A stretch of DNA of 50,662 bases. It comes from Mitsuaria sp. GD03876. GTDB lineage: Bacteria > Pseudomonadota > Gammaproteobacteria > Burkholderiales > Burkholderiaceae_C. The notes under the pieces are model-generated. The model was not told the DNA's origin, did not search any database, and saw only the letters and a program-made list of their open reading frames with translations. Shown piece by piece: positions 5,588-38,564 of this stretch. The stretch covers positions 1 through 50,662 of the forward strand of contig NZ_JAOCCU010000045.1 of the NCBI RefSeq assembly GCF_029840635.1, in the 5' to 3' direction. The position numbers were made by a program, and so were the translations under genes. Position 1 is the stretch's first letter. The number at the start of each line of letters is the position of its first letter.

Positions 5588-5588
5588 G

Positions 5589-6419
5589 TCAGATCTCGAT
5601 ATCCAGTGATCGACCGATCGCGTTGAAGGCGTCGGTGGAGTTGATGCCCAGCAAGCGGAAGGCCTCTGTGAAGGTCGTCCGCCCCTCCAGCGTGTGGTTG
5701 ATCAGTGACCAGGTGAATCGGCGGCTCGCCCGCGAGACAACGCGCGCGCAGAAGTCCACCTCGGGTGGCCGCTCCAGGAGCAGTTCCCTCTTGTCCACCA
5801 GCCTGCTCAGCAAGTCGATCGCCTCGTCAGCCACGCTGTCGCACCAGCGGCCGACTGCATTGCCGGCCTCGGCCGCGCCGCCGGACCGGCCGACCGCGGA
5901 GACACCCAGCCACAGGAGAGCGAGGTGCCTCGCCAGGACACGCAGTCGCACGGCAGAGGGCAGCCCTTCATTGACAAGGATCGTGGGCGCCCATCCGTCA
6001 GCCAAGGTGATGCCGTGGACAGAGCGCGCGTCAGGCATCTCTCGCACGTCGTCCGACATCACGGGGCCGACCATCACCAGGATGCCGGCGGACTCAGCCA
6101 GTTCTACAACGGCCTCGAACAGGTTTCCACGCCGCTGCGGGCCGTACAACGAGCGTCCGGACGCGCTCAGCAAGGCCCGGATCGATCCGGCCGCGAGGCC
6201 AGGCCGGGCACCCAGCGTCACGCTCCCCACGAATCCGAGTCGATCCTCGTCCGTCTCGGCCAGATAGTCCCGATACCACTCCTGACGCACCTCGCAGCGA
6301 TGCAAGGTGGCTTCCAGCCTTCGTTCCAGACTCGGTCGAACACTCGCTGGCGTCGCGACGGCGTGACCGAAGGTCCAATGCGAAGGGGCTGCTTGTTGAA
6401 TGCGCTGCATGACGCCCAT
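5589..6419 (-). CDS. ImmA/IrrE-like protein with degenerate HExxH motif and no HTH domain
   Basis: A 276-residue protein that aligns by eye with the C-terminal part of XRE-ImmA/IrrE regulators: 'RRLEATLHRCEVRQEWYRDYL', 'AGILVMVGPV', 'LLWLGVSAVG', 'WCDSVADEA' and 'FTEAFRLLGI'. These proteins normally have an N-terminal helix-turn-helix of about 65 residues and a zinc-binding HELAH motif. Here the motif site (residues 164-168) reads RHLAL, so both zinc-ligand histidines and the catalytic glutamate are lost. No helix-turn-helix is recognisable before residue 20 or in the upstream DNA in other frames. The start at 6419 (or 6410) is the nearest ATG to the recognisable domain; the frame stays open far upstream, but that part looks like non-coding shadow. 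It is coupled to the DUF4411 gene. It may be a decayed gene or a non-catalytic variant. Confidence 0.7.
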   Translation of the reverse strand: MGVMQRIQQAAPSHWTFGHAVATPASVRPSLERRLEATLHRCEVRQEWYRDYLAETDEDRLGFVGSVTLGARPGLAAGSIRALLSASGRSLYGPQRRGNLFEAVVELAESAGILVMVGPVMSDDVREMPDARSVHGITLADGWAPTILVNEGLPSAVRLRVLARHLALLWLGVSAVGRSGGAAEAGNAVGRWCDSVADEAIDLLSRLVDKRELLLERPPEVDFCARVVSRASRRFTWSLINHTLEGRTTFTEAFRLLGINSTDAFNAIGRSLDIEI

Positions 6420-23764: not shown

Positions 23765-24250
23765 CTAGGCGTCGCGCAGCAGCAGTTCGCCCTCGATTTC
23801 CACCGGGATGTTGAAGGGGAGTTCCGCCATGCCGACGGCGCTGCGCGCATGGCTGCCGCGTTCCGGGCCGAAGAGTTCGAGGATCAAGTGGGAGAAGCCG
23901 TTGATCACCGCCGGCTGCTGATGGAAGCCCGGCGCGGAATTCACCATGCCGAACACCCGCGACCAGGCCTGGATGCGGTCCAGGTCCCCCAGCGCCCGCT
24001 TCAGGCTGCCCAGGATCGCCAGGCCGGCCAGCTCGGCGGCGCGGTAACCCTGCGCCACCGTCAGCTCCGCGCCGACCTTGCCCAGCGGCCCCGCCACCGT
24101 GCCGTCCGGCTGCAGCGGTCCGTGGCCGGAGATCAGCACCCGCGATCCCTGCACCCGCACGAACGGGAACGGCAGCGCGCCGGGCGGCGACTGGATCGGG
24201 GCGGGAAGCGACAGGCCGCGTTCGGCCAGACGTTGTTCGATCAGGGACAT
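23765..24250 (-). CDS. RidA-family protein
   Basis: A 161-residue protein of the RidA/YjgF/YER057c family, of the longer subtype that begins 'MSLIEQRLAERGLSLP'. RidA proteins hydrolyse reactive enamine/imine intermediates made by PLP enzymes and amino-acid oxidases. 'GHGPLQPDGTVAGPLGKVGAELTVAQGYRAAELAGLAIL' and 'VFGMVNSAPGFHQQPAVINGFSHL' match this subtype. The usual active-site arginine of the main RidA branch is not obvious, so the activity may differ. It lies downstream of the YheO/DauR-like regulator gene and has its own promoter with the TTCAAC-N5-GTTGAA operators 31-66 bases upstream. Confidence 0.85.
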   Translation of the reverse strand: MSLIEQRLAERGLSLPAPIQSPPGALPFPFVRVQGSRVLISGHGPLQPDGTVAGPLGKVGAELTVAQGYRAAELAGLAILGSLKRALGDLDRIQAWSRVFGMVNSAPGFHQQPAVINGFSHLILELFGPERGSHARSAVGMAELPFNIPVEIEGELLLRDA

Positions 24251-24280: not shown

Positions 24281-24316
24281 TTCAACACATTGTCATTGTA
24301 TGAACAGAGTGTTGAA
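24281..24316. promoter_or_regulatory. Operator pair A before ridA-like gene (TTCAAC-N5-GTTGAA family)
   Basis: Two sites lie side by side: TTCAAC-ACATT-GTCATT (24281-24297) and ATGAAC-AGAGT-GTTGAA (24300-24316), 19 bases apart. Both match the TTCAAC-N5-GTTGAA palindrome seen at three other promoters. The AT-rich block stands out from the GC-rich surroundings and overlaps the probable promoter of the RidA gene. Confidence 0.6.
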
Positions 24317-24384
24317 CATAGACGCGCCCGCAGGCGCTTCGACGTGCAGACAAACCCTCGGGCGGCGCGATCCGCCGCGCGGGA

Positions 24385-25242
24385 TCAGGAGGACTTGCGG
24401 CGCGCCGCCGGCGCGGGGCCGGCCTTGGCCGCGCGGGGCTTGGCTTTCGACGCGGCGGGCGCGGGCTCCGGCGTCGACGGGGCGGTCTCGGCGCCATCGC
24501 CGTCGCGCTGGCGGATCGCCTCGAGGTAGTTGTAGACCGTGAAGCGCGACACCCCGAGCGCCGCGGCCGCGCGCTCCACGCCGCCCTTCACGATGAACAG
24601 GCCGCGCTTGAGCATCGCCTGCACCGCTTGCGTCTTCTCTTCCTTGTTCATCAGGCTGACCGGCTTGCCCAGCCGCCGGACCGCCTCGTCGATGATCTCG
24701 GCCATCAGCGTGTCCATCGCCGGGCGCGGCGCGGCGACGCCTTCGTCCTGCTGCGCCAGCGGCGCCAGGAACTGCCCCAGCCAGTGATGCGCCGCCTGGA
24801 ACATCGTCATGTCCGCGTTCAGGCACAGCGCCGCGAACGGATCGCCGTTGGCGTCGCGGAACACCACCGTCGACGAGCGCAGCCGCAGTCCGCCGTCGGT
24901 CTCGGTGGCGTAGTTGTCGATGATCGAGTGCTCCGCCTCGCCGCGCTCGGTCAGCTGCTTCTTGGTCTCGACGAAGGCCTTGTCGCCCTTCGGGCCCGCG
25001 ATGATGGAGCTGCCCACCGTCCGGTTGGAGATGTGCCCGTTGGCGATCGCCACGATCGAGTGCTCCGGCCTCATCAGGTCGTGCAGCACGATCTCGATGT
25101 TGGGCCCGACGATGGTGCCCAGCATCCGGACCACCGGCGGCAGCGCCTTCATCACCGTGTCGCGCTCCGCGACGATCTCGCGCGACAGCGAGTCGGGCTG
25201 GATGTGGTCGACCGTCGGCAGGGCCTTGCGCTTCTTCGTCAT
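24385..25242 (-). CDS. YheO/DauR-like PAS-HTH transcriptional regulator
   Basis: A 285-residue regulator. Residues about 25-150 form a YheO-like PAS domain ('LGTIVGPNIEIVLHDLMRPEHSIVAIANGHISNRTVG'), and residues about 210-250 the DauR-type helix-turn-helix ('AVQAMLKRGLFIVKGGVERAAAALGVSRFTVYNYLEAIR'). The known member DauR of Pseudomonas controls D-arginine catabolism. The last 35 residues form a basic Ala/Lys/Pro tail. It lies 61 bases after the MFS gene and may be the last gene of the TonB receptor operon, followed by ridA. It is the best candidate for binding the TTCAAC-N5-GTTGAA operators; this is inference from location. Confidence 0.88.
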   Translation of the reverse strand: MTKKRKALPTVDHIQPDSLSREIVAERDTVMKALPPVVRMLGTIVGPNIEIVLHDLMRPEHSIVAIANGHISNRTVGSSIIAGPKGDKAFVETKKQLTERGEAEHSIIDNYATETDGGLRLRSSTVVFRDANGDPFAALCLNADMTMFQAAHHWLGQFLAPLAQQDEGVAAPRPAMDTLMAEIIDEAVRRLGKPVSLMNKEEKTQAVQAMLKRGLFIVKGGVERAAAALGVSRFTVYNYLEAIRQRDGDGAETAPSTPEPAPAASKAKPRAAKAGPAPAARRKSS

Positions 25243-25303
25243 CGGTTCCGGTGTCCCTAGGGTGGCGAGCGGCGATTCTGCCTGAGCCCTCCCGCCACGG
25301 ACC

Positions 25304-26632
25304 TCAGGCGGAACCCCGCGCGTCGTGCCGGCCGGCGCGCGCGATGTCGGCCAGCAGGAAACGCGACGCGCCCATCAGGCAGGCCCCCGCGGCCAGCGCC
25401 GCCGGCACCAGCACCCACAGCGAGGACTGCAGCGCCAGCGCGCCGCGGGCGGCGAAGAGCGACTCGTTGAGCGTGCCCACGATCAGCGGACCGCAGCCCA
25501 GGCCGAGGCTGGCCACCAGCACGTGCAGCGCGCAGACCTGCGAGCGCAGCAGCGACGGCGCGGTGCACTGGTAGATCGCGTAGATCGGCCCCAGCGTCGC
25601 CGACAGCAGGAACATGCCGATGCCCAGAGCGGCGAAGGCCACCGTCGCCTGCGTCGCGGTCAGGAACAGCGCGAAGACCGGCCCCAGCAACAGCAGCGCC
25701 GCCGCCGGCGTCCACGACTGCCAGCGGTCGTCGCGGCGCGCCAGGCGCGAGGTCAGCCAACCGCCGGCCAGCGCGCCGCCGACGCCGGCGAATCCCTTGA
25801 TCAGCCCGAGCGTGTAGCCGATGCGGGACAGCTCCACGCCGTGCACGCGGGCGAAGTAGCTCGGCGACCAGGCGATCAGCGCCATCAGGATCAGGCCGAC
25901 GAACACGCTGCCCGCCAGCGTCAGCAGGATCGAGCGCTGCCGCGCCACGAAACGCGCCGACTCCCAGGCCGAAGGCATCGCCGCCGGCCGCGCCGGCGCG
26001 GCGGCCGCCAGCACGCCGCCTTCGCCGAGCCGGCGCTCGCGCAGCGTCGCCACGATCAGCAGGCCCAGCAGCAGGCCCGGCACGCCGGCGCAGATGAAGG
26101 CGGTGCGCCAGCCATGCAGGTGGGCGATCCATCCGCCCAGCGCCAGGCCCAGCGAGGTGCCGAGCGACGCGCCGGCGTTGACCAGGCCCAGGATGAAGGG
26201 CCGGCGCGCCTTCGGGTACTGGTCGCCGACCAGCGCCAGCGCCGGCGCGGTGCCGGCGGCCTCGCCGATGCCGACGCCGATCCGCGCCATCAGCAGCGGC
26301 GCGAACGCGCCGGCGAAGCCGCAGGCGACGGTCGCGGCGCTCCAGACCACCATGCCGGAGCCGACCACCAGCGGCCGCCCGACCCGGTCGGCCAGCCGCG
26401 CCAGCGGGATGCCGAGCACCGCGTACACCAGCGCGAATCCGAAGCCCAGCAGCCAGCCGATGTCGGTGTCGGTCAGCTGCAGCTCGGGCTTCATCGGAAT
26501 GATCAGCACCGAGAGGATGGAGCGGTCCAGGTAGTTCAGCGTCATCGCGCCGAAGATCAGCGCGGCGTAGAAGGCCGGCGCGTCGGTCAGGCGGCGGACG
26601 GGAGGCGCGCTCGCATGGACGATCGGGGTCAT
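25304..26632 (-). CDS. MFS transporter
   Basis: A 442-residue inner-membrane carrier with about twelve hydrophobic segments. The MFS signature between segments 2 and 3 is visible as 'GIPLARLADRVGRPLVV', and 'NYLDRSILSVLIIPMK' in segment 1 is typical of the anion:cation symporter/spinster-type families. The central loop is Ala/Pro-rich. Its ATG overlaps the stop of the S10 peptidase gene by four bases, so the two are translated together. In this operon it probably imports the small peptides or amino acids made by the periplasmic peptidases. Confidence 0.9.
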   Translation of the reverse strand: MTPIVHASAPPVRRLTDAPAFYAALIFGAMTLNYLDRSILSVLIIPMKPELQLTDTDIGWLLGFGFALVYAVLGIPLARLADRVGRPLVVGSGMVVWSAATVACGFAGAFAPLLMARIGVGIGEAAGTAPALALVGDQYPKARRPFILGLVNAGASLGTSLGLALGGWIAHLHGWRTAFICAGVPGLLLGLLIVATLRERRLGEGGVLAAAAPARPAAMPSAWESARFVARQRSILLTLAGSVFVGLILMALIAWSPSYFARVHGVELSRIGYTLGLIKGFAGVGGALAGGWLTSRLARRDDRWQSWTPAAALLLLGPVFALFLTATQATVAFAALGIGMFLLSATLGPIYAIYQCTAPSLLRSQVCALHVLVASLGLGCGPLIVGTLNESLFAARGALALQSSLWVLVPAALAAGACLMGASRFLLADIARAGRHDARGSA

Positions 26633-28170
26633 GGGGACGGGTCCTTGTCGGCGGCATCGAGCATCGCGCGCACGTCCGTCATCAGCGCGCGCAGGCTGCG
26701 TTCGATCGAGTAGGCCATGTGCCCGCCCTCGTAGTAATGCTGCGTCAGGCGGTCCCTGGGCCAGCCGGCCTGCGCCACCGCCTGCTCGGCGGCGCCCACC
26801 GTCGTCAGCGTGTCCGCGTAGCCGTTGCCCAGCACCAGGCGCAGCCGCGGGTTCTTCTCCATCGCTTCCCGCATCCAGGCCATGAAGGGCCAGTCGTCGA
26901 AAGGCGCGCTGCCGCCCCATTGCCAGTCGCTGAAGGACTTGACCGCCGAGTCCGTGATGTAGGGCTCCGTCAGGTCCAGCCCGAGCGACTGCTTCGCGTG
27001 CTCGGCGAAGGCGGCGTGCGCGGCCTTGAACAGCACCTCGGAGCCGTCCGGCAGCGGCCCCGAGGCCGCGGCGGGCGCGGTGTAGCGGCCGTCGTACATG
27101 CCCAGCACCAGGCCCCGGTCCGCGAGCAGCTCGGCGCGATAACGCATCTTGGACACGCGCAGGTCGAGCGCCTCGAAACGCGCGGCCGGCAAGCCGGTGA
27201 GCGCCTCCAGCCGCCGCGCCAGCGCCTGGCGGCGCGACGCCGGCAGCGCCTGGCCGAGGTAGAGCGCCGGCAGGTACTCGTCGCGCGCGAAGCGCCGGGC
27301 CTCGTCCACGAAGGCCTCGAACGAGCGCCCTTCCCGACGCACCTTGCCGTGGTGCCAGCCCAGCGCCGCCAGCGTCGGCAGCGAGACGACGTAGCTCATC
27401 AGGTTGGCCGGCCGCTGCACGGTCTCGACGATGTTCAGCCCCTGCCCGAACAGGAACACGCCGTCCAGCCGCAGCGCCGGCGTGCCGGTGGCCAGCCGGC
27501 GCGCGACCGCGGCCGCGCGCACGGTGCCGTAGCTCTCGCCGAAGAGGAACTTCGGCGACGCCTCGCGCCCATGCGCCGCCGCCCACTGCCGCGCGAAGGC
27601 GACGAACTCCTGCGCGTCGGCGTCGACCGAGAAGAAGTCCCGCGGAGTGCTCGGCGGCGTCGCGCGGCTGTAGCCGGTCCCGACCGGATCGAAGAACACC
27701 AGGTCGGCCCGGTCGAGCACGGTGTCCGGGTTGTCGACCAGGCGGAAGCCGGCCGGGTCGGCGCCCAGGTCGTCGGGCACCGCCACGCGCCGCGGCCCGA
27801 AGGCCATCATGTGCAGGTAGACCGACGGCACGATCGGACCGCCGTTGAACAGGAACAGCACCGGGCGGCGCGCCGGATCGCCGGCGGCGCCGTCGACGCG
27901 GTCGGCCAGGTAGGCGGTCGACACGACCTGCCCCGACGGCCCCGGCGACGGCAGCGCGATCGCGGTGCGCTCGACCAGCGCGGTGTAGCGCACGGCGCGG
28001 CCGCCGAAGCGGCCTTCGTGCTGGGTGCGGCTGATCACCTCGGGCCCGGCCGCGAAGGCCGGCGACGAGGCCGCGGCGAGCAGCATCGCCAGCACACCGG
28101 CGATCGCGCCGGCCAGCACGCCCTCGGCGGCCAGCATCGGCAGGCGTCGTTTCAGGAGACGTCGGAACAT
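26629..28170 (-). CDS. Exported S10 family serine carboxypeptidase (first)
   Basis: A 513-residue protein with a signal peptide (about residues 1-40, ending AFA). Carboxypeptidases of family S10 remove C-terminal residues from peptides. The catalytic triad is visible: Ser213 in 'FGESYG', Asp in 'LVLGNGYADTLTTVG' and His in 'YYEGGHMAYS'; the substrate loop 'LFNGGPIVPS' and 'FFDPVGTGYSRA' are also present. The ATG at 28170 lies 17 bases after the TonB receptor stop, with GAGGA before it; the long open frame upstream is the receptor gene in another frame. Location is probably periplasmic. It is coupled to the MFS gene. Confidence 0.93.
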   Translation of the reverse strand: MFRRLLKRRLPMLAAEGVLAGAIAGVLAMLLAAASSPAFAAGPEVISRTQHEGRFGGRAVRYTALVERTAIALPSPGPSGQVVSTAYLADRVDGAAGDPARRPVLFLFNGGPIVPSVYLHMMAFGPRRVAVPDDLGADPAGFRLVDNPDTVLDRADLVFFDPVGTGYSRATPPSTPRDFFSVDADAQEFVAFARQWAAAHGREASPKFLFGESYGTVRAAAVARRLATGTPALRLDGVFLFGQGLNIVETVQRPANLMSYVVSLPTLAALGWHHGKVRREGRSFEAFVDEARRFARDEYLPALYLGQALPASRRQALARRLEALTGLPAARFEALDLRVSKMRYRAELLADRGLVLGMYDGRYTAPAAASGPLPDGSEVLFKAAHAAFAEHAKQSLGLDLTEPYITDSAVKSFSDWQWGGSAPFDDWPFMAWMREAMEKNPRLRLVLGNGYADTLTTVGAAEQAVAQAGWPRDRLTQHYYEGGHMAYSIERSLRALMTDVRAMLDAADKDPSP

Positions 28171-28187
28171 GGTGGGCGGGTCCTCGC

Positions 28188-30488
<2,301 letters not shown>

Positions 30489-30551
30489 GATTTGTCCCGG
30501 TGGGTCGCTCGTGCGGACCCTGTCACTGGTGTGGAGGAGGCCGACCGTTCA

Positions 30552-30588
30552 TTCAACATTCAGTTGATCGATATGACGATCTGTTGAC
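30552..30588. promoter_or_regulatory. Operator pair B before the TonB receptor gene
   Basis: The strong site TTCAAC-ATTCA-GTTGAT (30552-30568) is followed 20 bases on by a weaker one, TATGAC-GATCT-GTTGAC (30572-30588). This matches the arrangement in front of the RidA, M61 and class V PLP-enzyme genes. It lies 64-100 bases upstream of the receptor start. Confidence 0.6.
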
Positions 30589-30657
30589 ATTCTGGTCGGC
30601 GCCCTGGACGAAAACAAGCGGGGACCACTAGGAAGAAACCAGAACTTTGTTGTTTGA

Positions 30658-30674
30658 TTCAACAGTCTGTTGAC
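30658..30674. promoter_or_regulatory. Operator C upstream of the TonB receptor gene
   Basis: TTCAAC-AGTCT-GTTGAC contains a perfect 15-base palindrome (TCAACAG-T-CTGTTGA). It lies 106 bases from operator B, about ten helical turns, and 170 bases upstream of the receptor start, just after the end of the second S10 gene. It could support looping with site B. Confidence 0.6.
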
Positions 30675-30713
30675 AACCAGCCACGCGCCGGCGGTCACCC
30701 GCCGTCCACGCGG

Positions 30714-32306
30714 TCAGCGCTCCTGCAGGAAGCGGCGCACCTCCTTCGAGAACCGCGCCAGGTTCGCGTCGTCGTCGTAGGTCGAGTGGGCCGAGGCGAA
30801 GCGCTCCATCCGCACCCGCGCCATCGGCAGGCCGGCGTGGTCGAGCGCGTACTCCGCCGCCCCGACGGTGGTGGCCATGTCGAAGTAGCCGCCGGTGTAG
30901 AGCAGCCGCACCGCGGGCCGCTCCCGCATCACGTCGGCGATGTGGCGCGTCGGGTTCAGGTAGAGCGTCTCCTGCCCGCCGACGTCGTGCCAGTTCCAGC
31001 GTCCGTTGACGTCGAAGGACAGCGTCACGTACTTGCGGTCGACCGGCACCCGCAGCGTCTGCCGGAAGTACGCGTCCAGCGGCCCGAGCCCCGCGCCGCC
31101 GGCCTGCAGCGACGGGTCGTTGGTCGGCTTGCCCGGCGGCGGCGGCAGGCTGGAGCCGGTCACCCGCGTGTCCAGCCGCCCGAGCCGGCGTCCGGGCTCG
31201 TTCAGCACATGGGTCAGGAAGTATTCGCTGTCCACGCGCAGGCGCCGCGCCTTCAGGTCCTCGACGTCCAGGCCGATCAGCGCGCTCATCCGCGCCGCCA
31301 GCGCGTCGCGGCGCTCCGGCGCCAGGCGCGAGCCGTCCATCAGGGCGGGCAGGTAGTCGCTCCGGACGAAGTCCCGCGCCCGGTCGAAGACCTCGCCGAC
31401 GCTCTCGCCCTGCGCGCGGCGATCGCCGCGGCCATGCCGCCAGGCGGCCACCGCCATCGACGGCAGGTCCATCGCGTACAGCAGCTCGTTGCCCGGCGCC
31501 GGCGTGGACAGGCTCATGTCCAGCAGCGGCGACACCAGCAACAGCCCGTCCAGGCGCGGCAGCTCCTTGGCGTGGCGCATCAGCGAGGCGACGCGGAAGC
31601 CGCCGTAGCTCTGGCCGCCGATGAACAACGGCGAGTCCTCCCGCCCCTGCGCCTTCAGCCAGTGGCGGATCATCGCCAGCGCCGCGCGCGCATCGCCGTC
31701 GATGCCCAGGTAGGGGCTCGGCGCGTCGGTCTTGAGCACGCGGCTGTAGCCGGTGCCGACGGGGTCGACGAACACCAGGTCGGCCGCGTCGAGCAGCGTG
31801 TCCGGATTGGGTTCGAGCTGGCGCGCCGGCTCGCGGCCGGTCCGCTCGATCAGGCGCACCGGGCCCAGCGCATTGAAGTGCAGCGGCGACGAGGACGCGC
31901 CCGGTCCGCCGTTGAACAGCACCAGCACCGGCCGCCGCGACGGCGCGTCCGACGGCACGACGTAGGAGGTCGCGGCGATCGTCGCCAGCGGCGACGCCGA
32001 GCCTTCGGGCAACGGCAGCTCGGTGAATGTCGCCACGTAGGCCAGCGTGCGGCCGTGCAGCGTCATCTCGTGGCGCGTCACGATCGGCCCCGGCAGCAGC
32101 GGCGCGGCCTTGAGTGGAGCGGACGCGCCCGCCGCGAACGGGGCCGATGGGCCAGGCGCCGATGGGGCCGCCGTCGACGCCGCGGGAGCAACGGTCGCCC
32201 CCGGCGAGGCGGCCTGGGCCGGCACCGCGCCCGCGATGACGAACGACAGGCTCAAGGCCGCGGCCGCGGCGGCCACTTCGGAGCGAAGGAGGACGGCGCG
32301 CGTCAC
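30714..32306 (-). CDS. Exported S10 family serine carboxypeptidase (second)
   Basis: A 530-residue S10 peptidase with a signal peptide (about residues 1-32) and an Ala/Pro/Ser-rich linker of about 35 residues before the catalytic domain. Ser233 in 'GGQSYGG', Asp in 'LLYTGGYFDMATTVG' and His in 'FASAHSTYDDD' form the triad; 'LVLFNGGPGASSS' is the family substrate loop. The start is the GTG at 32306, whose GTGA overlaps the stop of the M61 gene; no ATG fits the signal peptide. It differs considerably from the first S10 protein, so it is not a recent duplicate. It probably acts in the periplasm with the M61 enzyme. Confidence 0.9.
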   Translation of the reverse strand: MTRAVLLRSEVAAAAAALSLSFVIAGAVPAQAASPGATVAPAASTAAPSAPGPSAPFAAGASAPLKAAPLLPGPIVTRHEMTLHGRTLAYVATFTELPLPEGSASPLATIAATSYVVPSDAPSRRPVLVLFNGGPGASSSPLHFNALGPVRLIERTGREPARQLEPNPDTLLDAADLVFVDPVGTGYSRVLKTDAPSPYLGIDGDARAALAMIRHWLKAQGREDSPLFIGGQSYGGFRVASLMRHAKELPRLDGLLLVSPLLDMSLSTPAPGNELLYAMDLPSMAVAAWRHGRGDRRAQGESVGEVFDRARDFVRSDYLPALMDGSRLAPERRDALAARMSALIGLDVEDLKARRLRVDSEYFLTHVLNEPGRRLGRLDTRVTGSSLPPPPGKPTNDPSLQAGGAGLGPLDAYFRQTLRVPVDRKYVTLSFDVNGRWNWHDVGGQETLYLNPTRHIADVMRERPAVRLLYTGGYFDMATTVGAAEYALDHAGLPMARVRMERFASAHSTYDDDANLARFSKEVRRFLQER

Positions 32307-34024
32307 AGCTTGCACTCCGCGTCCGCCACGCCCTCGACGCGACGCCATTCGGTGGACGGCACGCCCGCCGAGCGCGGCAGGAAGGACACCGTGCGTTCCT
32401 CGCCGCCACGGCGGTAGGTCACCGAGATCGTCTTCGCCGGATCGTTCTTGACCTCCCGGATCGGCGTCATCCGCACGATCTCGTCGCCGTCGGCCAGCCC
32501 GGCGCGGGCAGCGCCGCTGTCGGACCGCAGCCCGTTCACCGACGCCAGCCGCATCTCGTCGAAGCCGAGGTCGAACGGCACCTCCCGCTTCGCCGCCGGC
32601 GCGAAGCACGGCCCGAAGCTGTTGGGCGGAATCTCCAGCCGCTCGCCGGCCACCATCGCGTCGAAGTCCTTGCGCGCGTCATCGCCGAGGATCGCCGTCA
32701 CCATCGCGACCCACTCCGGGTTGCCGACCTTCTCGCCGGCGCGCTGGCGCCGCAGCACCTGGCGCACCAGGTCGTCCAGGCTCTGCCGTCCGGCGGTCTT
32801 CGCGCGCAGCAGGGCGTCGACGCGCGCCAGGTACATGAAGCCGCGCCCGTAGGGCACGCGCTGCGCGCGCGCGTCCTGCCAGAAGCGCTTGCCGACCTCG
32901 ACGTTGCTGAGCGCCAGGAACGGGTTGGTGTAGTAGCCGGCCGCATGCTCGTTGATCACGCGCTGGAACTTGGCCAGGTCGATCACGCCGGCGCGGCGCG
33001 CCAGCAGGACCGAGTAGTACTCGGCCGTTCCCTCGGAGTACCAGGCCGTCTCCCCGTGCTCGCCGACGTTCATCCGCGGCCAGTTGTGCGTGATCTCGTG
33101 GGCCAGCAGCATCTGCAGGTCGTCCCCGCTGCTGGTCTGCCCGCCGACGCCGTAGCCGAACATGAACGAGCGGTTGCCGGCGGTGCCGCCGCCGGCCGGA
33201 TACGGATTGCCGCGCACGAAGATCCGGTACGGCGCGCCGCTGTCGTCGAAGAAGCGCGCCATGTGGTCGTAGAGCTGGCGGATGTCGCGGGCTAGGCCGG
33301 CCGTGTCGAACGGCGGTGTCGCCAGCCAGTACAGCGCGAAGGCGGTGTCGACCTCGGCGGGCTCGCTGCGCACCGGGCCGGCCGCGAAGTAGCTGAAGCC
33401 CAGCATCTCCGAGGTGGCCTCGGCGGTGCGCGGGCCTTCGCCGAAGCTCGACACGCCGCGCCAGCCCGTCGGCACCCGGTCCAGGTTCCAGCGCAGCGAC
33501 AGGCGGTAGCGCTGCTCGCCCGCGGGAGGCGCGAGGAAGTAGATCCCCGCGCCGACCACGCCGCCGGCCTCCGAGCGCAGGTCGAAGAGCGGCCCGTTGC
33601 GGGTCTTCGCGTCGACGACGCGCGGCGCCGTGCCGTAGCGCAGGCGCACATCGCCCGAGGTGGCGCGCGCCGGCAGCCAGCGGCGGTAGTGGCCGGTGGG
33701 GGTGGGCGGCTCGTCCTCGATGGTCAGCGGCAGCTCGCCCTGGTCGTCCCGCGCCGAGATCGCCCGGGCGTCGTAGGCCGCCGTCGGCACGCCGACGACG
33801 AAGGTCGGCATCCGCAGCAGCGGCTGCCCGGCGGCCACGCGCGGCGCCTGCACCGTCATGTCGACCTCGAGCCGCTCGATCCGCCCGCCGGCGGCCACCG
33901 GCGTCAGCACGACCGTCATCGCCGGCAAGGGCTCCGCGGCGCGCGCGGCGCCTCCCGTCCACAGCGCCATCACCGCGCCCAGCGCGGCGAGCGCCGCGCG
34001 CATCGTTTCCATGCGAGTCCGCAT
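32303..34024 (-). CDS. Exported M61 family metallopeptidase with PDZ-like domain
   Basis: A 573-residue protein of the glycyl-aminopeptidase family M61. A signal peptide covers about residues 1-29 (ending ARA). The zinc site is 'HEITHNW' (309-315) with the third ligand Glu331 in 'WYSEGTAEYY'. The C-terminal 'AARAGLADGDEIVRMTPIREV' region is a PDZ-like domain (about 495-560). ATG 34024 is favoured by GAGG at six bases; 34030 is the alternative. It is the first gene of an operon with the second S10 peptidase. Together they would trim peptides from both ends outside the cytoplasm. Operator pair D lies 46-82 bases upstream. Confidence 0.9.
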   Translation of the reverse strand: MRTRMETMRAALAALGAVMALWTGGAARAAEPLPAMTVVLTPVAAGGRIERLEVDMTVQAPRVAAGQPLLRMPTFVVGVPTAAYDARAISARDDQGELPLTIEDEPPTPTGHYRRWLPARATSGDVRLRYGTAPRVVDAKTRNGPLFDLRSEAGGVVGAGIYFLAPPAGEQRYRLSLRWNLDRVPTGWRGVSSFGEGPRTAEATSEMLGFSYFAAGPVRSEPAEVDTAFALYWLATPPFDTAGLARDIRQLYDHMARFFDDSGAPYRIFVRGNPYPAGGGTAGNRSFMFGYGVGGQTSSGDDLQMLLAHEITHNWPRMNVGEHGETAWYSEGTAEYYSVLLARRAGVIDLAKFQRVINEHAAGYYTNPFLALSNVEVGKRFWQDARAQRVPYGRGFMYLARVDALLRAKTAGRQSLDDLVRQVLRRQRAGEKVGNPEWVAMVTAILGDDARKDFDAMVAGERLEIPPNSFGPCFAPAAKREVPFDLGFDEMRLASVNGLRSDSGAARAGLADGDEIVRMTPIREVKNDPAKTISVTYRRGGEERTVSFLPRSAGVPSTEWRRVEGVADAECKL

Positions 34025-34069
34025 CTTCATCCTCGATTCCGATTCAACGAGCAAGCTCGATCACTGAAC

Positions 34070-34106
34070 AACAACACTAAGTTGCCACGTTCAACTTGTT
34101 GTTGAA
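34070..34106. promoter_or_regulatory. Operator pair D before the M61 peptidase gene
   Basis: The best site of the family, TTCAAC-TTGTT-GTTGAA (34090-34106), is a perfect palindrome. A weaker one, AACAAC-ACTAA-GTTGCC (34070-34086), lies exactly 20 bases away. The block is AT-rich compared with its surroundings. Confidence 0.65.
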
Positions 34107-34257
34107 TCTATGCGAGGTGGCGCCTCCCCCGTACTGGGGTTCACCCGAAAAGCGTTGATATGTCTACGGTATCGTAGTGCAGATCGCCCGGAATGTCCGC
34201 CCCTTGCCTGAGGTGGGCGGTCCACGGCGGCGGCGCGAACGCCGGCACGACTCCGCG

Positions 34258-34845
34258 CTAAGCGGCGCTCTTGCGCCGGCGGCCCTTGGGCGCGGGCGCC
34301 TCGTCCTCGTCGGGCAGGCCGGCGCCGGCGGCCTCCGCGAAGGCCTGCAGCTTCTTCAACGCGGTGTAGAGCCCCTTGCGCTCGGACAGCGTCAGCGCGG
34401 CGAGCAGTTCGGACTGCTTGCGCCGCGTGGCCTCGAAGGCCAGCGCATGCACCTTGCGGCCCTTGGCCGTCAGCTCGACCAGCAGCCGCTGGCGATGCTG
34501 CGGATCCGCCTCGCGCCGCGCCAGGCCGCGCGCCACCAGCGCATCCAGCACGCGACTGATCTGGGCCTTGTCCATCCAGGTCCGGCTGGCGATCTCGCCG
34601 GCCACGCTGCGGCCGTTCTCATGCAGGAAGGCCAGCAGCCGCCATTCCGGCACGCCGAGCTCGTGCGGCTCCAGCGCCGGCCGGGTCAGGTGCCGCTGGA
34701 TCAGCGTCGTGGCGCCGACCAGCAGCACGCCGGGGAAGTCCACCATCGCCAGCGTCTGGCCGTCGGGCGTCGGGTCGCGCCAGCTGTCCGGCACGGTGAT
34801 CGGGCCGGATTCGGGGGATTGGGGGGTGTCGGAGGCGGTCGTCAT
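34258..34845 (-). CDS. MarR-family transcriptional regulator
   Basis: A 195-residue MarR protein. The winged helix-turn-helix spans about residues 60-130 ('LGVPEWRLLAFLHENGRSVAGEIASRTWMDKAQISRVLDALVARGLARRE') with the wing following. A basic C-terminal tail (RRRKSAA) is present. The start ATG at 34845 is clear, with the rest of the open frame upstream being shadow of the divergent gene. Two inverted repeats ACCGWTG-N6-CAACGGT lie in the divergent region and are its likely operators, so it should regulate itself and the enolase-dehydrogenase operon. Confidence 0.9.
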   Translation of the reverse strand: MTTASDTPQSPESGPITVPDSWRDPTPDGQTLAMVDFPGVLLVGATTLIQRHLTRPALEPHELGVPEWRLLAFLHENGRSVAGEIASRTWMDKAQISRVLDALVARGLARREADPQHRQRLLVELTAKGRKVHALAFEATRRKQSELLAALTLSERKGLYTALKKLQAFAEAAGAGLPDEDEAPAPKGRRRKSAA

Positions 34846-34891
34846 GCGGGAAGTAAAGCACGACCTCCCGCCTTTCCGCTCCCTGGCAATC

Positions 34892-34911
34892 ACCGATGAC
34901 GTGACAACGGT
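34892..34911. promoter_or_regulatory. MarR operator 1
   Basis: ACCGATG-N6-CAACGGT, an inverted repeat with one mismatch, lies 46 bases before the MarR start. It has the same half-sites and spacing as operator 2, 65 bases away. Confidence 0.55.
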
Positions 34912-34956
34912 GCGACACCTGGGCGGACGTGTCGATCCAGCGCCATGCTCGCCATT

Positions 34957-34976
34957 ACCGTTGACATCACAACGGT
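34957..34976. promoter_or_regulatory. MarR operator 2
   Basis: ACCGTTG-N6-CAACGGT is a perfect 7-6-7 inverted repeat, with symmetry extending to ten bases per arm at one mismatch. It lies 20 bases before the enolase-superfamily start codon, where binding would block transcription or translation. Confidence 0.65.
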
Positions 34977-34996
34977 TATGCGAAAGCATCCGCGCC

Positions 34997-36175
34997 ATGA
35001 AGATCGTCCAAGTCGAGCAATTCCGCGCGGAGGGCGGCCTCAGGCCGCTCTGCTTCCTGAAGGTCACCGGGGACGGCGGGCTCGCCGGCTGGTCGGAGTA
35101 CAGCGAGCTGCTGGGCGGCGCCGGCGTCGGCGAGCTGATCGCGCGGATGGCGGCTGGCCTGGTCGGCACGGATCCACGCGACACGGCGCGGCTGTCGCAG
35201 CGGCTCGAAGCGCAAACCCGGAGCGCCAGCGGTGGGCTCAATGCCCAGGCGGCGGCGGCGATCGAGAACGCCTGCCTCGACCTGAAGGCCAAGGCGCTGG
35301 ACGTGCCGGTGCATGAGCTGTTCGGCGGCGCCGTCCGCGACCGGCTGCCGGCGTACTGGTCGCACTTCGGCATGCACCGGGTCCGGGCCGCGCACCAACT
35401 GGGGCGGGAGCCGCTGCGCACGCTCGACGACCTGGCCGCGATGCTCGACGAGGCGCGGGACCGCGGCTACCGGACCTTGAAGACCAACGTGATGCTGTTC
35501 GGCGACGCGGCGCCGCGGCTGTACATGCCGGGCTTCGGCCGCGACGCCGGCGGGCCGGGACTGAACCTGGACGGCGCCTTGCTCCAGGCCATCGCGGCCC
35601 AGATGGGCGCGCTGCGGGCGGCGGCGGGACCGGCGTTCGGGCTGGCGCTGGATCTCAACTTCAACTTCAAGCCGTCGGGCGTGCGGCGCATCGCGCAGGC
35701 GCTGGAGCCGATGGCGCTCGCCTGGCTGGAGACGGACCTGCCCGATCCCGCCGCGCTGGCCGCGCTGCGCCAGGCGACGCGCACGCCGATCGCCTCGCTG
35801 GAGACGCTGGTCCACCGGCGCCAGGTGCTGCCCTACCTGACGGCGCAGGCGGTGGACTACGCGATCGTCGACGTCATGTGGGCGGGCCTGGGCGAGGCGG
35901 TCCGCATCGCGGCGCTGGCCGGCGCGCACGACGTCAACCTCAACACCCATGTGTTCAGCAGCCCGCTGGCGACCGCGATGGCGGCGCACCTGGGGGCGAT
36001 CGCGCCGAACTTCCACCTGATGGAGCTGGACGTCGACACGCCGCCGTGGGTGGCGGCGATGTTCCATCAGCGGCTGCAGGTCGTCGATGGCGAGCTGCTG
36101 GTGCCCGCCGGCCCCGGCTGGGGCATCGAGCCCGACGAATCCGCGCTGCGCGTGCACGCGGTGGAGGTCGCATGA
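34997..36175 (+). CDS. Mandelate racemase/muconate-lactonizing (enolase superfamily) protein
   Basis: A 392-residue enzyme of the enolase superfamily. These enzymes abstract a proton next to a carboxylate and eliminate water or epimerise; substrates are mostly sugar acids or amino-acid derivatives. The metal-ligand set appears as Asp in 'LALDLNFNF', Glu in 'AWLETDLPDP' and Glu in 'PIASLETL'. The base candidates are Lys in 'RTLKTNVML' and His in 'NLNTHVFSSP', the latter typical of the acid sugar dehydratases. The substrate cannot be told. It is coupled to the dehydrogenase gene by an ATGA overlap. Confidence 0.9.
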   Translation: MKIVQVEQFRAEGGLRPLCFLKVTGDGGLAGWSEYSELLGGAGVGELIARMAAGLVGTDPRDTARLSQRLEAQTRSASGGLNAQAAAAIENACLDLKAKALDVPVHELFGGAVRDRLPAYWSHFGMHRVRAAHQLGREPLRTLDDLAAMLDEARDRGYRTLKTNVMLFGDAAPRLYMPGFGRDAGGPGLNLDGALLQAIAAQMGALRAAAGPAFGLALDLNFNFKPSGVRRIAQALEPMALAWLETDLPDPAALAALRQATRTPIASLETLVHRRQVLPYLTAQAVDYAIVDVMWAGLGEAVRIAALAGAHDVNLNTHVFSSPLATAMAAHLGAIAPNFHLMELDVDTPPWVAAMFHQRLQVVDGELLVPAGPGWGIEPDESALRVHAVEVA

Positions 36176-37161
36176 TCTCGCTGCTGCTGAGCGCCGCCCG
36201 GGCCCGCGAGCACGCGGACGCGCTGCGCTTCGCGGCGCATGCCGAGGGCGAGACGCTGCGCCTGGTGACGCCGGAGGACGTGGCGCACGTGCCCACGCTG
36301 CTGGAGGACGTCCAGGTGGCCTGGTACACGCTGGACCTGCTCGAAGGCGGCTCGCCGACGGGCCCGGCCTCGCGGCGCTTCTTCGCGCTGCTGCAGGACT
36401 GCCCCGCGCTGCGCTGGCTGCATGTCATGTCGGCCGGCACCGAGCTGCCGATGTACGAGCCGGTGCGCCGGCGCGGCGTGCTCTTCACCACCGGCTCGGG
36501 CATCGCGGCGCAGCCGGTGGCGCACAGCGCGGTCGCCGCGGTGATGGCGCTGTCGCGCGGCTTCGGCCACTGGACCGCGGCCCAGCAGCGGCGCGAATGG
36601 TCGCGGATCCCGCCGGACCGGCTGCCCCGCGACCTCCCCGGCCAGCATGCGGTGGTGATCGGGCTGGGGCCGATCGGGCTGGAGATCGCGCGGCTGCTGC
36701 GCGCGGTCGGCCTGCATGTCACCGGCGTGCGCAGCCGGGCCCAGCCCGCGGACGGCGTCGACCGGACGATCGCGTTCGGCGAGCTGGCCGGCGTCATCGG
36801 CACCGCGGACTGGCTGATCGTGTGCTGCCCGCTGTCGGACCTCACCCGCGGCCTGGTGGACCGGACGATGCTGGCCTCGCTGCCGATGGGCGCGGGCATC
36901 GTCAACGTCAGCCGCGGCGCGGTCATCGACGAGCCGGCCCTGCGCGACGCGCTGACGACCGGCCGCGTCGGCGCGGCCTACCTCGACGTGTTCGAGCAGG
37001 AGCCGCTCGCGGCGGATTCGCCGTTCTGGTCGCTGCCCAACGTGTGGATCTCGCCGCACAACGCCGCCGCGTCGCGCGGCAACGCCGCCCGGGAGCTGCG
37101 GCTGTTCGTCCGCAACCTGGGGAACTTCCTGGCGGGACGGTCGCTCGAGAACGCCCGCTGA
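36172..37161 (+). CDS. D-isomer specific 2-hydroxyacid dehydrogenase
   Basis: A 329-residue NAD(P)-dependent dehydrogenase. The Rossmann motif 'VVIGLGPIGLEIARLL' is at about residues 160-175; the catalytic Arg is in 'IVNVSRGAVIDEPAL', Glu in 'VFEQEPL' and His in 'WISPHNAA'. The N-terminal domain ('LRWLHVMSAGTELPMYEPV') is of the less studied branch with glyoxylate/hydroxypyruvate reductase-like members. Coupling to the enolase-type enzyme suggests that it acts on the keto-acid made by that enzyme. Both are controlled by the divergent MarR gene, by inference. Confidence 0.9.
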   Translation: MISLLLSAARAREHADALRFAAHAEGETLRLVTPEDVAHVPTLLEDVQVAWYTLDLLEGGSPTGPASRRFFALLQDCPALRWLHVMSAGTELPMYEPVRRRGVLFTTGSGIAAQPVAHSAVAAVMALSRGFGHWTAAQQRREWSRIPPDRLPRDLPGQHAVVIGLGPIGLEIARLLRAVGLHVTGVRSRAQPADGVDRTIAFGELAGVIGTADWLIVCCPLSDLTRGLVDRTMLASLPMGAGIVNVSRGAVIDEPALRDALTTGRVGAAYLDVFEQEPLAADSPFWSLPNVWISPHNAAASRGNAARELRLFVRNLGNFLAGRSLENAR

Positions 37162-37252
37162 GGCGCCAGGCGGACGGGCGGACGGGTGGACCGGCGGACG
37201 AGCAACCGAGTATTCGCGCAGTGACGGCGAGCGGCCCCGCCGCCACCGGCCT

Positions 37253-38482
37253 TCAGCGCCGCGGCAGCGCGGCCAGCAGGCGGTCGATGTCGTCCTGGTC
37301 GTTGAACACCGACACGGAGACCCGGAAGCGATTCGCCGAGAGCGTGATGCGGACCTTCGCCTCGCTCAACACCGGCCCCAGCGCCTGCCGCGCGTTGGGC
37401 AGCAGGCCGGCGACCATCGGCGTGCGAGCCTCCTGCGGCGTGAAGACCGGATACCCGCGCCGCGGCAGTTCCTGCTTGAGCCGATCGGTGAGCGTCTGCG
37501 CGTGCGCCTGGATGGCCGGCACCCCGATCGCCTGCAGGTAGTCGAGCGAGTGGTTGAGCATCGCCGCGACGCCGAACGAGAACGTGCCCTGGCCGAAGAG
37601 GCCGATGGCGCCGTCGAAGCGCGTGTACTCGACCACGCCCGGCCCGGGCGGATCGAACGGCAGGTAGTGCGGCGTGAACGACCGGATCTGGTGATACCCC
37701 ATGGACGGCGGACGCAGCATCGCCTGCCGGTCCTTGCGGACGTACAGGAAGCCCAGCCCGAAGTCGCCCATCAGCCACTTGTAGCTGGCGCAGGCGGCGA
37801 AGTCGACGCCGCTGGCATGCACGTCGACCGGGATGCAGCCGGCCGCGTGCACGATGTCCGCATACACGAGCGCGCCCTGGGCATGCGCGATCTCGCAGAC
37901 GCGCCGCAGGTCGTGCTCGAAGCCGTTGATCGTCGAGACCTGCGACAGCGCCACCAGCCGCGTGCCCTTGCGCACGGCGCGCTCGATGTCGTCCAGCGCG
38001 ATGCGTCCGTCGCGGGGCGCGATCCAGGTGACCTCGACGCCGGCCTTCTCCAGCTCGGCGTAGATCGGCAGGGAGCCGAAGAAGTGCAGCGTGTCGGTGA
38101 CGACGTGGGCGCCCTTGGCCGGCAGACCGAGCGCCTGCAGGATCAGGTTCTCTCCGGCGGTGGTGCTCTGGACGAAGGCGATCTCGTCCGCGTCTGCATT
38201 GATGAGGCGCGCGAACTTGGCGCGCACCTCGTCCTCGTCGAAGCCCTTGCGCGGCGGCGCGTCCGAGCCGAAGCCGCGGTAGCGCTGGTAGCGCTCGAGC
38301 GCCTCGCGCGCGCCGCAGCCGATCGGGTGCATCGAGCCGGCATCCAGGTAGCAGGCCGTGCCGAGCGGGAACTCCGCCTTCGCCGGCAGGCCGGGGCGGG
38401 GCGCCTCGACGGCCGCGCGAGCGCCCTCCGCCATCGCCCCGGGCAGCACCGCGGCCGCCGCCAACATCTCGCGTCTGTTCAT
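37253..38482 (-). CDS. Tat-exported class V PLP-dependent enzyme
   Basis: A 409-residue aminotransferase class V protein (isopenicillin-N epimerase/cysteine desulfurase fold). The PLP lysine is in 'FAACASYKWLMGDFG', and the Asp-x-Val-His segment 'LVYADIVHAAG' binds the cofactor ring. The N-terminus 'MNRREMLAAAAVLPGAMAEGARA' is a twin-arginine signal, so the enzyme probably folds with its cofactor and is then exported. ATG 38482 has GAGGAG well placed. Members can be epimerases, lyases or aminotransferases. An operator of the peptide regulon lies 46-82 bases upstream, which suggests a role such as racemising or cleaving D-residues outside the cytoplasm. Confidence 0.88.
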   Translation of the reverse strand: MNRREMLAAAAVLPGAMAEGARAAVEAPRPGLPAKAEFPLGTACYLDAGSMHPIGCGAREALERYQRYRGFGSDAPPRKGFDEDEVRAKFARLINADADEIAFVQSTTAGENLILQALGLPAKGAHVVTDTLHFFGSLPIYAELEKAGVEVTWIAPRDGRIALDDIERAVRKGTRLVALSQVSTINGFEHDLRRVCEIAHAQGALVYADIVHAAGCIPVDVHASGVDFAACASYKWLMGDFGLGFLYVRKDRQAMLRPPSMGYHQIRSFTPHYLPFDPPGPGVVEYTRFDGAIGLFGQGTFSFGVAAMLNHSLDYLQAIGVPAIQAHAQTLTDRLKQELPRRGYPVFTPQEARTPMVAGLLPNARQALGPVLSEAKVRITLSANRFRVSVSVFNDQDDIDRLLAALPRR

Positions 38483-38527
38483 CGGACCCGCTCCTCGCGT
38501 CCGTCGGGCGGCCGTCGCGCATGATTG

Positions 38528-38564
38528 ATGCACAATTCGTTTCCACCATCAACGTATCGTTGAA
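38528..38564. promoter_or_regulatory. Operator pair E before the Tat-exported PLP enzyme gene
   Basis: The strong site ATCAAC-GTATC-GTTGAA (38548-38564) and the weak site ATGCAC-AATTC-GTTTCC (38528-38544) are 20 bases apart. They match the TTCAAC-N5-GTTGAA family found at 24281, 30552 and 34070. Confidence 0.55.

What the first reader, a model, noticed from the sequence alone, without database searches (positions are those of the whole stretch)
24281..38564. A shared TTCAAC-N5-GTTGAA operator links four promoters into one candidate regulon
AT-rich palindromes of the form TTCAAC-N5-GTTGAA stand in front of the RidA gene (24300-24316), the TonB receptor gene (30552-30568 and 30658-30674), the M61 peptidase gene (34090-34106, perfect) and the Tat-exported PLP enzyme gene (38548-38564). 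At each promoter a weaker copy lies 19-20 bases from a strong one (24281, 30572, 34070, 38528), two helical turns, as for cooperative dimer binding. I see this motif at no other promoter in the window. The adjacent YheO/DauR-like regulator (24385-25242) is the best candidate binder. Neither the motif nor this gene set is known to me as a described regulon.
Basis: partly seen in the sequence, partly recalled or inferred. Interest (0 to 1): 0.78.

Follow-up and report, generated by a model that had tools for sequence, protein, structure and literature searches.

The report
Operator and regulon of YheO-like repressor
A short palindromic DNA signal in front of four genes is very probably the landing site of the neighbouring YheO/DauR-like gene switch; the same signal recurs beside relatives of that switch in distant bacteria, which gives a poorly studied regulator family a testable DNA target.

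Summary
The motif is real. WTCAAC-N5-GTTGAW sits where reported. The 6.36-Mb genome has six exact copies: three are the tonB, M61 and PLP-enzyme promoters here, the others look intragenic. The weak partner sites are supported at ridA and M61, marginal at tonB and not above chance at the PLP gene.

The two regulators separate. Site A (TTCAAC type) follows the YheO/DauR-like gene into loci with no relative of that MarR, and persists beside relatives down to about 35% identity in Variovorax, rhizobia, enterobacteria and Actinomycetota. Site B (ACCGTTG-N6-CAACGGT) follows the MarR. Of 16 genomes of the genus, two encode the YheO-like protein, and only those two have exact sites A within 10 kb of each other. 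Paired sites are mostly 19 bp apart; regulators with site A share the helix signature R[FYH][TS][IV]Y[NS].

Best reading: a YheO-family repressor binding as two side-by-side dimers, controlling ridA, tonB-S10-MFS(-regulator), M61-S10 and an exported PLP enzyme. Binding, sign and ligand are untested. A new operator and regulon of a known family.

The parts
24281..24316 (.). site A pair before ridA: weak 24281-24297 (3 mismatches to WTCAACN5GTTGAW) and strong 24300-24316 (1), step 19 bp
   Evidence: same pair in R. violae L029:8085/8104
30552..30588 (.). site A pair before tonB: exact 30552-30568 and weak 30572-30588 (4 mismatches), step 20 bp
30658..30674 (.). further site A upstream of tonB (1 mismatch)
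34070..34106 (.). site A pair before M61: weak 34070-34086 (3 mismatches) and exact 34090-34106, step 20 bp
38548..38564 (.). exact site A before the PLP enzyme gene; the proposed partner at 38528 (5 mismatches) is not above chance
24385..25242 (-). YheO/DauR-like regulator (PAS_6 + HTH_22), proposed binder of site A
   Evidence: Pfam; footprinting
23765..24250 (-). RidA/YjgF-family gene, proposed target
   Evidence: PF14588
25304..26632 (-). MFS transporter, proposed target through the tonB operon (start estimated)
26629..28170 (-). S10-type peptidase, proposed target through the tonB operon (start estimated)
   Evidence: PF00450
28188..30488 (-). TonB-dependent receptor, proposed target
30714..32306 (-). 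second S10-type peptidase, proposed target through the M61 operon (start estimated)
   Evidence: PF00450
32303..34030 (-). M61-type peptidase, proposed target; perhaps under both regulators
   Evidence: PF05299, weak: 24.3 bits against a cut-off of 22
37253..38482 (-). class-V PLP enzyme with an apparent twin-arginine signal, proposed target
34258..34845 (-).
34892..34911 (.). site B, ACCGATGACGTGACAACGGT (1 mismatch), upstream of marR and the enolase-type gene
34957..34976 (.). site B, ACCGTTGACATCACAACGGT (exact)
34151..34170 (.). weaker site B (2 mismatches) upstream of M61; counterpart in R. violae L029:17991

Best explanation
The palindromes are operators of the YheO/DauR-like PAS_6-HTH_22 protein encoded at 24385-25242. 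Two dimers bind side by side, usually 19 (18-20) bp apart, on TTCAACA-N3-TGTTGAA elements whose centres lie about 40-90 bp before the start codons of ridA, tonB-S10-MFS (probably with the regulator gene at its end), M61-S10 and an exported class-V PLP enzyme. The most likely action is repression, released when the PAS domain binds a small molecule made or imported by the system (an amino-acid or peptide-derived compound, perhaps an imine or keto acid). Uptake, peptide cleavage, the PLP reaction and RidA imine hydrolysis would then be induced together. Shown by computation: site positions, rarity, clustering with the regulator gene, conservation, the 19-bp step, separation from the MarR, the helix signature. 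Inferred: binding, cooperativity, repression, operon structure, ligand.
For: Clustering: in R. violae 5 of 5 exact genomic sites and in G116 1 of 1 lie in the cluster; in the genus only the 2 of 16 genomes with the regulator have exact sites within 10 kb. Conserved sites before ridA, tonB and M61 in R. violae, G116 and G964. Site A beside YheO-family genes that stand with PLP-enzyme and/or ridA genes in V. paradoxus, V. boronicumulans, Variovorax OV700, Phyllobacterium, R. leguminosarum, Klebsiella sp. PL-2018 and (weaker) R. erythropolis, and beside the gene in Chimaeribacter and Streptomyces NBC_01445. Step: counting from each of 38 strong sites in 15 loci, neighbours with up to 3 mismatches within 45 bp number 13 at 19 bp, 3 at 20, 2 at 18 and 6 elsewhere (a pair of two strong sites counts twice). 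Spacer: 17 exact sites with N5, 1 with N2, 0 with N3, N4 and N6-N9 in 16 loci. Helix: the 14 regulators scored positive carry R[FYH][TS][IV]Y[NS]. Repressor precedent: C. jejuni Cj1387c, a YheO-like PAS6-HTH protein, represses the adjacent L-PSP/Rid-type gene cj1388 (PMC4519771, passages).
Against: No binding or expression data. Loci were found by regulator homology, so regulator, ridA and PLP gene travel together and any of them could formally be the correlate. G139 has only a 2-mismatch site, and none of its 3 exact genomic sites lies in the cluster. In Variovorax OV700 only 1 of 8 exact sites is at the locus. The Nonomuraea and S. chartreusis relatives (34-35% identity) have none within 4 kb. 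A test confined to 600 bp upstream of the regulator gene found a site with at most 1 mismatch in only 7 of 42 loci, and a permuted motif (TWCAAC) did as well in loci counted. The pre-stated helix test met only two rule-positive cases: L090 failed the strict N5 criterion, and L119/L148 passed only through a hairpin-like pair about 1 kb upstream; both have an N4 variant at the expected place, noticed afterwards. No sigma-70-type match was found at the four promoters, so the position relative to transcription starts is unknown.
Confidence: 0.87

Rival explanations
1. The MarR-family protein encoded inside the cluster (34258-34845) binds site A and runs the regulon.
For: It is local, and MarR proteins bind short palindromes (general knowledge). 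It is present in the window, R. violae and G116, all of which have site A.
Against: Site A is present in G964 and Variovorax OV700, and at 2 mismatches in G139, where tblastn found no relative of this MarR in the DNA taken; G139 is also not among the genomes with a MarR match in the family search. The MarR has its own palindrome, site B, upstream of it in the window, R. violae and G116 and beside a second R. violae MarR (72% identity) that has no site A better than 2 mismatches. Against that tidy picture: two more distant MarR relatives (45% and 39%, L086, L087) have no site B, and CCGNTGN6CAACGG is not enriched genome-wide (4+3 matches against 6+7 in the control).
Confidence: 0.04
2. Site A is bound by a third, unlinked regulator (for example of the TetR, GntR or LacI type) that happens to control these genes.
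For: Palindromes of this size suit many families (general knowledge); no binding data exist.
Against: Exact sites cluster only where the YheO-like gene is present, and the motif stays beside that gene in several phyla with otherwise different neighbours.
Confidence: 0.07
3. The palindromes are chance or structural elements (terminators, repeats) without a regulator.
For: Lone matches with 1 mismatch are common in the genome (86 against 12 in the control), and one relative has a hairpin-like pair.
Against: 22 matches against 3.75 in shuffles; conserved positions before orthologous genes; N5 spacer and 19-bp step preferences.
Confidence: 0.02

Closest known systems
C. jejuni CfiR (Cj1387c) and its target cj1388 (PMC4519771, passages read)
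   Same: YheO-like PAS6 domain joined to an HTH; neighbour of and repressor of an L-PSP/Rid-type gene; the paper reports that the two gene types are commonly linked.
   Different: No operator appeared in the passages I read ('palindrom' and 'footprint' do not occur in its main text); different physiology (flagella interactions); one known target against four promoters here.
P. aeruginosa DauR (PA3864), regulator of dauBAR (one passage of PMC7789669; repressor role recalled)
   Same: Same domain pair (PF08348 + PF13309) and a link to amino-acid catabolism.
   Different: No dauBAR-type genes were identified in this cluster; identity to DauR and the dauBAR promoter were not examined; its original papers were not found in the library.
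E. coli YheO (b3346)
   Same: Same family (PAS_6-HTH_22 type).
   Different: About 23% identity in the aligned part; helix KHTVYLY; no site A with up to 2 mismatches within 600 bp upstream.

Membership tests
YheO/DauR-type regulators (PAS_6 + HTH_22) | PAS_6 domain followed by HTH_22 | tested here: met
   PF08348 105.2 bits (cut-off 27) and PF13309 72.8 bits (cut-off 29.6)
YheO/DauR-type regulators (PAS_6 + HTH_22) | frequent linkage to a Rid-family gene | tested here: met
   ridA next to the regulator in the window; also
Pseudomonas DauR (dauBAR repressor) | controls dauBAR and responds to D-arginine (recalled) | not tested
   no dauA/dauB search was made; named only as a family relative
Local repressor with tandem operators (two dimers) | paired palindromes at a fixed step before target promoters | tested here: met
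   in the window clear at ridA and M61, marginal at tonB, not supported at the PLP gene
Local repressor with tandem operators (two dimers) | protein binds the sites and lowers transcription | not testable with these tools
   needs EMSA, footprinting and RNA measurements
MarR-family operator (site A as a MarR site) | the site travels with the MarR gene | tested here: not met
   site A without a MarR relative in the DNA taken, and a MarR paralogue without a good site A

The most novel reading that the evidence does not exclude
A whole clade of YheO-family regulators, marked by the helix signature R[FYH][TS][IV]Y[NS] and found in Pseudomonadota and Actinomycetota, uses one conserved double-dimer operator (TTCAACA-N3-TGTTGAA twice, 19 bp apart; an N4 variant in one sub-branch) to control RidA/PLP-enzyme modules for catabolism of amino-acid or peptide compounds. 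Specificity in the family would then be readable from a few helix residues.
Probability: 0.7. Interest if true: 0.62.

Novelty: new member of a known kind. Interest (0 to 1): 0.55.

Why it matters
YheO-family regulators are widespread (36 of 398 Pseudomonadota genomes, the own one included, matched a profile built from seven site-A-positive regulators at E<=1e-25; most of those read lack the helix signature). The paper searches made here gave no operator for any of them, and a sequence search of the PDB found no credible relative of this protein. A concrete operator, a predicted specificity helix and a recurring target set (RidA, a PLP enzyme, transporters, peptidases) make the family's DNA target and physiology directly testable.

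Tried and rejected
MarR as binder of site A: rejected.

Chance or a global regulator: rejected on genome counts.

Test confined to 600 bp upstream of the regulator gene: only 7 of 42 loci had a site A with up to 1 mismatch, and one of 179 permuted half-sites (TWCAAC, a near-copy of the motif) reached 7 loci too, with 8 hits against 14. The test was badly framed: in the window, its close relatives and the rhizobia the sites stand before target operons, not before the regulator gene. It was replaced by +/-4 kb scans, where 10 of 42 loci have a paired site. These still miss sites farther out (Phyllobacterium L053:1935/1954 and R. leguminosarum L054:1945/1964).

Helix rule: derived after the fact from the 42 loci. 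I had marked 14 as positive (one of them, G139, has only a 2-mismatch site); 15 of 42 fit the rule, the fifteenth being R. jostii (L075), marked negative until sites were found around its ridA/permease intergenic region. Later trial (rule written): 5 plasmid loci and 29 genome loci, of which one (L122) repeats L068 of the first set, so 33 new ones. One search gave loci for only part of its matches. Of the 31 new rule-negative loci 0 have a paired site by the criteria used (slightly different in the two calls) and 8 have a lone match with up to 1 mismatch, not inspected. The 2 rule-positive ones are described under evidence against.

Searches with the window protein at E<=1e-50 in order and class samples found only the own genome (1 of 399 and 1 of 369). 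NCBIfam gave no family for the regulator, Pfam only PAS_6 and HTH_22. Paper searches listed no paper with an operator for a YheO/DauR protein that I could recognise. The original P. aeruginosa DauR papers were not found in that library, so an operator published there cannot be excluded.

Full report
WHAT WAS CHECKED. The window is contig C40 of a 6.36-Mb genome; the window itself is 71% G+C. All five reported strong sites are present. With the arms written WTCAAC/GTTGAW, the genome has six exact copies and the reversed control none. Three are the tonB, M61 and PLP promoters of this window. The other three look intragenic: a TonB-receptor-like gene, a phage-tail-like gene (both judged by eye) and, less surely, an ORF in C33. 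The ridA site (24300) and the second tonB site (30658) have one mismatch to this form.

GENES. Gene calls: ridA 23765-24250, YheO/DauR-like regulator 24385-25242 (PAS_6 + HTH_22), MFS about 25304-26632, S10-type peptidase about 26629-28170, TonB receptor 28188-30488, second S10 peptidase about 30714-32306, M61-type peptidase 32303-34030 and MarR 34258-34845, all on the minus strand; mandelate-racemase/enolase-type 34997-36175 and 2-hydroxyacid dehydrogenase about 36172-37161 on the plus strand; class-V PLP enzyme 37253-38482 on the minus strand, whose N-terminus reads like a twin-arginine signal (by eye). The close or overlapping ends of tonB, S10 and MFS, and of M61 and S10, suggest two operons (inference). 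The regulator follows MFS by about 60 bp, so it may be controlled through the tonB operator.

THE OVERLOOKED MarR. The region between the MarR and the enolase-type gene carries another palindrome, ACCGTTG-N6-CAACGGT, at 34957 (exact) and 34892 (1 mismatch); a weaker copy lies upstream of M61 at 34151 (2 mismatches). The number of matches with up to 3 mismatches in the window is not remarkable (4; 9 of 100 shuffles reach it), and the shortened pattern is not enriched genome-wide (4+3 against 6+7 in the control). What speaks for it is position. In R. violae copies with 2 mismatches stand upstream of the MarR (L029:18779) and of M61 (L029:17991); a third with 2 mismatches lies elsewhere in that locus (8277). 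G116 has an exact and a 1-mismatch copy (L031:15936, 15960), and a second R. violae MarR elsewhere in that genome has both (L088:2066, 2110) with no site A better than 2 mismatches. Two MarR relatives of 45% and 39% identity have none (L086, L087). The element thus goes with close relatives of this MarR, and M61 may be under both regulators.

FOOTPRINTING. In 200 family genomes 15, the own one included, had a match at E<=1e-3, three of the others close (G034 75%, G116 65%, G139 54%); one more of 16 is in the genus (G964, 66%), and Variovorax sp. OV700 has one (48%). G034 is taken to be Roseateles violae and G139 Scleromatobacter humisilvae from matching contig lengths. In R. violae exact sites stand before ridA, tonB and M61, and an exact tandem pair (L030:224, 242; 18-bp step) precedes an operon that I read by eye as 4-hydroxyphenylpyruvate-dioxygenase-like, VOC, fumarylacetoacetase-like and asparaginase-like genes. 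In G116 sites stand before ridA (2 mismatches), tonB (1) and M61 (0). In G964 sites stand before M61 (0), tonB (1) and ridA (0), and tblastn found no relative of the MarR or of the enolase-type gene in the 34 kb taken. In G139 there is one site with 2 mismatches, before a ridA-type gene.

FARTHER AWAY. tblastn against annotated plasmids (204 records; I fetched 19 of the regions and one E. coli chromosome stretch for this part, and 5 more for the later trial) gave relatives from 52% identity down. Site A occurs in V. paradoxus (L051), V. boronicumulans (L052), Phyllobacterium (L053) and R. leguminosarum (L054), each time with a class-V PLP gene and ridA beside the regulator; in Klebsiella sp. 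PL-2018 (L055) before a regulator-ridA-PLP operon; in Chimaeribacter (L058) and Streptomyces NBC_01445 (L059) upstream of the regulator; and more weakly in R. erythropolis (L065). In R. jostii (L075) four weaker sites (two with 1, two with 2 mismatches) lie at 5469-5669, in or at the edge of the ridA/permease intergenic region. In the other relatives tried, E. coli yheO included, no site with up to 1 mismatch stood within 600 bp upstream of the regulator; a few had a lone match elsewhere within 4 kb.

ARCHITECTURE. From 51 sites picked by me, the 33 with up to 1 mismatch give TTCAACA-N3-TGTTGAA, with A at position 7 and T at position 11 in 71% (symmetrised). Counting from each of 38 strong sites in 15 loci, neighbours with up to 3 mismatches within 45 bp number 13 at 19 bp, 3 at 20, 2 at 18 and 6 at other distances; a pair of two strong sites counts twice. 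Only the N5 spacer is enriched: 17 exact sites, against 1 with N2 and 0 with N3, N4 and N6-N9, in 16 loci. In one search, 10 of 42 loci had a paired site within 4 kb, and the expectation from 20 first-order shuffles per locus was at most 0.05 for each locus.

CONTROLS. Among 16 genomes of the genus the regulator is in two. The 14 without it have 1-4 exact sites each, 39 in all, no two within 10 kb on a contig; both genomes with it have such clusters (distances read from the listing; several genomes are in many contigs). In R. violae 5 of 5 exact sites, in G116 1 of 1, in Variovorax OV700 1 of 8 and in G139 0 of 3 lie in the cluster.

HELIX SIGNATURE. The 14 regulators I had marked positive all read R[FYH][TS][IV]Y[NS] in HTH_22; 27 of the other 28 do not, the exception being R. 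jostii. I wrote the rule down and tried 33 new loci (5; 28 new of 29). None of the 31 without the signature has a paired site; 8 of them have a lone match with up to 1 mismatch, not inspected. Of the two with it, the Salmonella plasmid locus (L090) has only a 2-mismatch N5 site, and G1195 has an exact pair that belongs to a hairpin-like perfect palindrome about 1 kb upstream of ridA, possibly a terminator. In both, a version with a 4-base spacer (exact in G1195, 1 mismatch in L090), followed by a repeated half-site, stands upstream of the ridA-regulator operon; this was noticed afterwards. The trial is clean for negatives and only suggestive for positives.

MECHANISM. Site centres lie 39-92 bp before the start codons, with an extra tonB site at 178, as suits a repressor; no sigma-70-type match was found, so this is not proven. 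In C. jejuni the YheO-like PAS6-HTH protein Cj1387c represses the neighbouring L-PSP/Rid-type gene cj1388, and the paper reports that the two are commonly linked (PMC4519771; passages). DauR is listed as regulator of the dauBAR operon (PMC7789669; one passage); that it is a repressor is recalled. The repeated company of RidA and a PLP enzyme points to imine chemistry of amino acids; the uptake and peptidase genes here point to peptides. The ligand is open.

KNOWN OR NEW. The searches showed me no published operator for a YheO/DauR-type regulator; most were seen as listings only, and subscription papers are mostly missing from that library. The system is an ordinary kind (a local repressor with tandem operators) but an apparently undescribed operator and regulon for an under-studied family.

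Noticed in passing
34892-34911, 34957-34976, 34151-34170: A second palindrome, ACCGTTG-N6-CAACGGT, lies between the MarR and enolase-type genes, with a weaker copy upstream of M61; it goes with close MarR relatives in R. violae (including a paralogue) and G116, so it is probably the MarR's own operator.
   Followed up: yes
L030:224-258: In Roseateles violae an exact tandem pair of site A precedes an operon that reads like tyrosine/homogentisate catabolism genes (HPPD-like, VOC, fumarylacetoacetase-like, asparaginase-like), which may hint at the ligand.
   Followed up: partly
L148:8172-8187 and L090:4520-4535: A 4-base-spacer version of site A upstream of ridA-yheO-phzF-brnQ operons, in genome G1195 and a Salmonella plasmid; possibly a sub-branch with a shorter operator.
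   Followed up: partly
L148:7219-7254: Two exact sites A form the core of a perfect hairpin-like palindrome flanked by A- and T-rich tracts; terminator or operator pair cannot be told apart here.
   Followed up: no
L027, L016, L017: YheO-family relatives of about 31-32% identity, one in the own genome (G000:C46) and two in G175 and G069, have different palindromes near their start (TATTTGTC-N8-GACAAATA; CATCTGGA-N7-TCCAGATG), suggesting other operator classes in the family.
   Followed up: no
37253-38482: Class-V PLP enzyme with an apparent twin-arginine signal: an exported PLP enzyme; its NCBIfam matches include pyoverdine-tailoring PvdN, but far below the curated cut-off (38.4 of 650 bits).
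   Followed up: no
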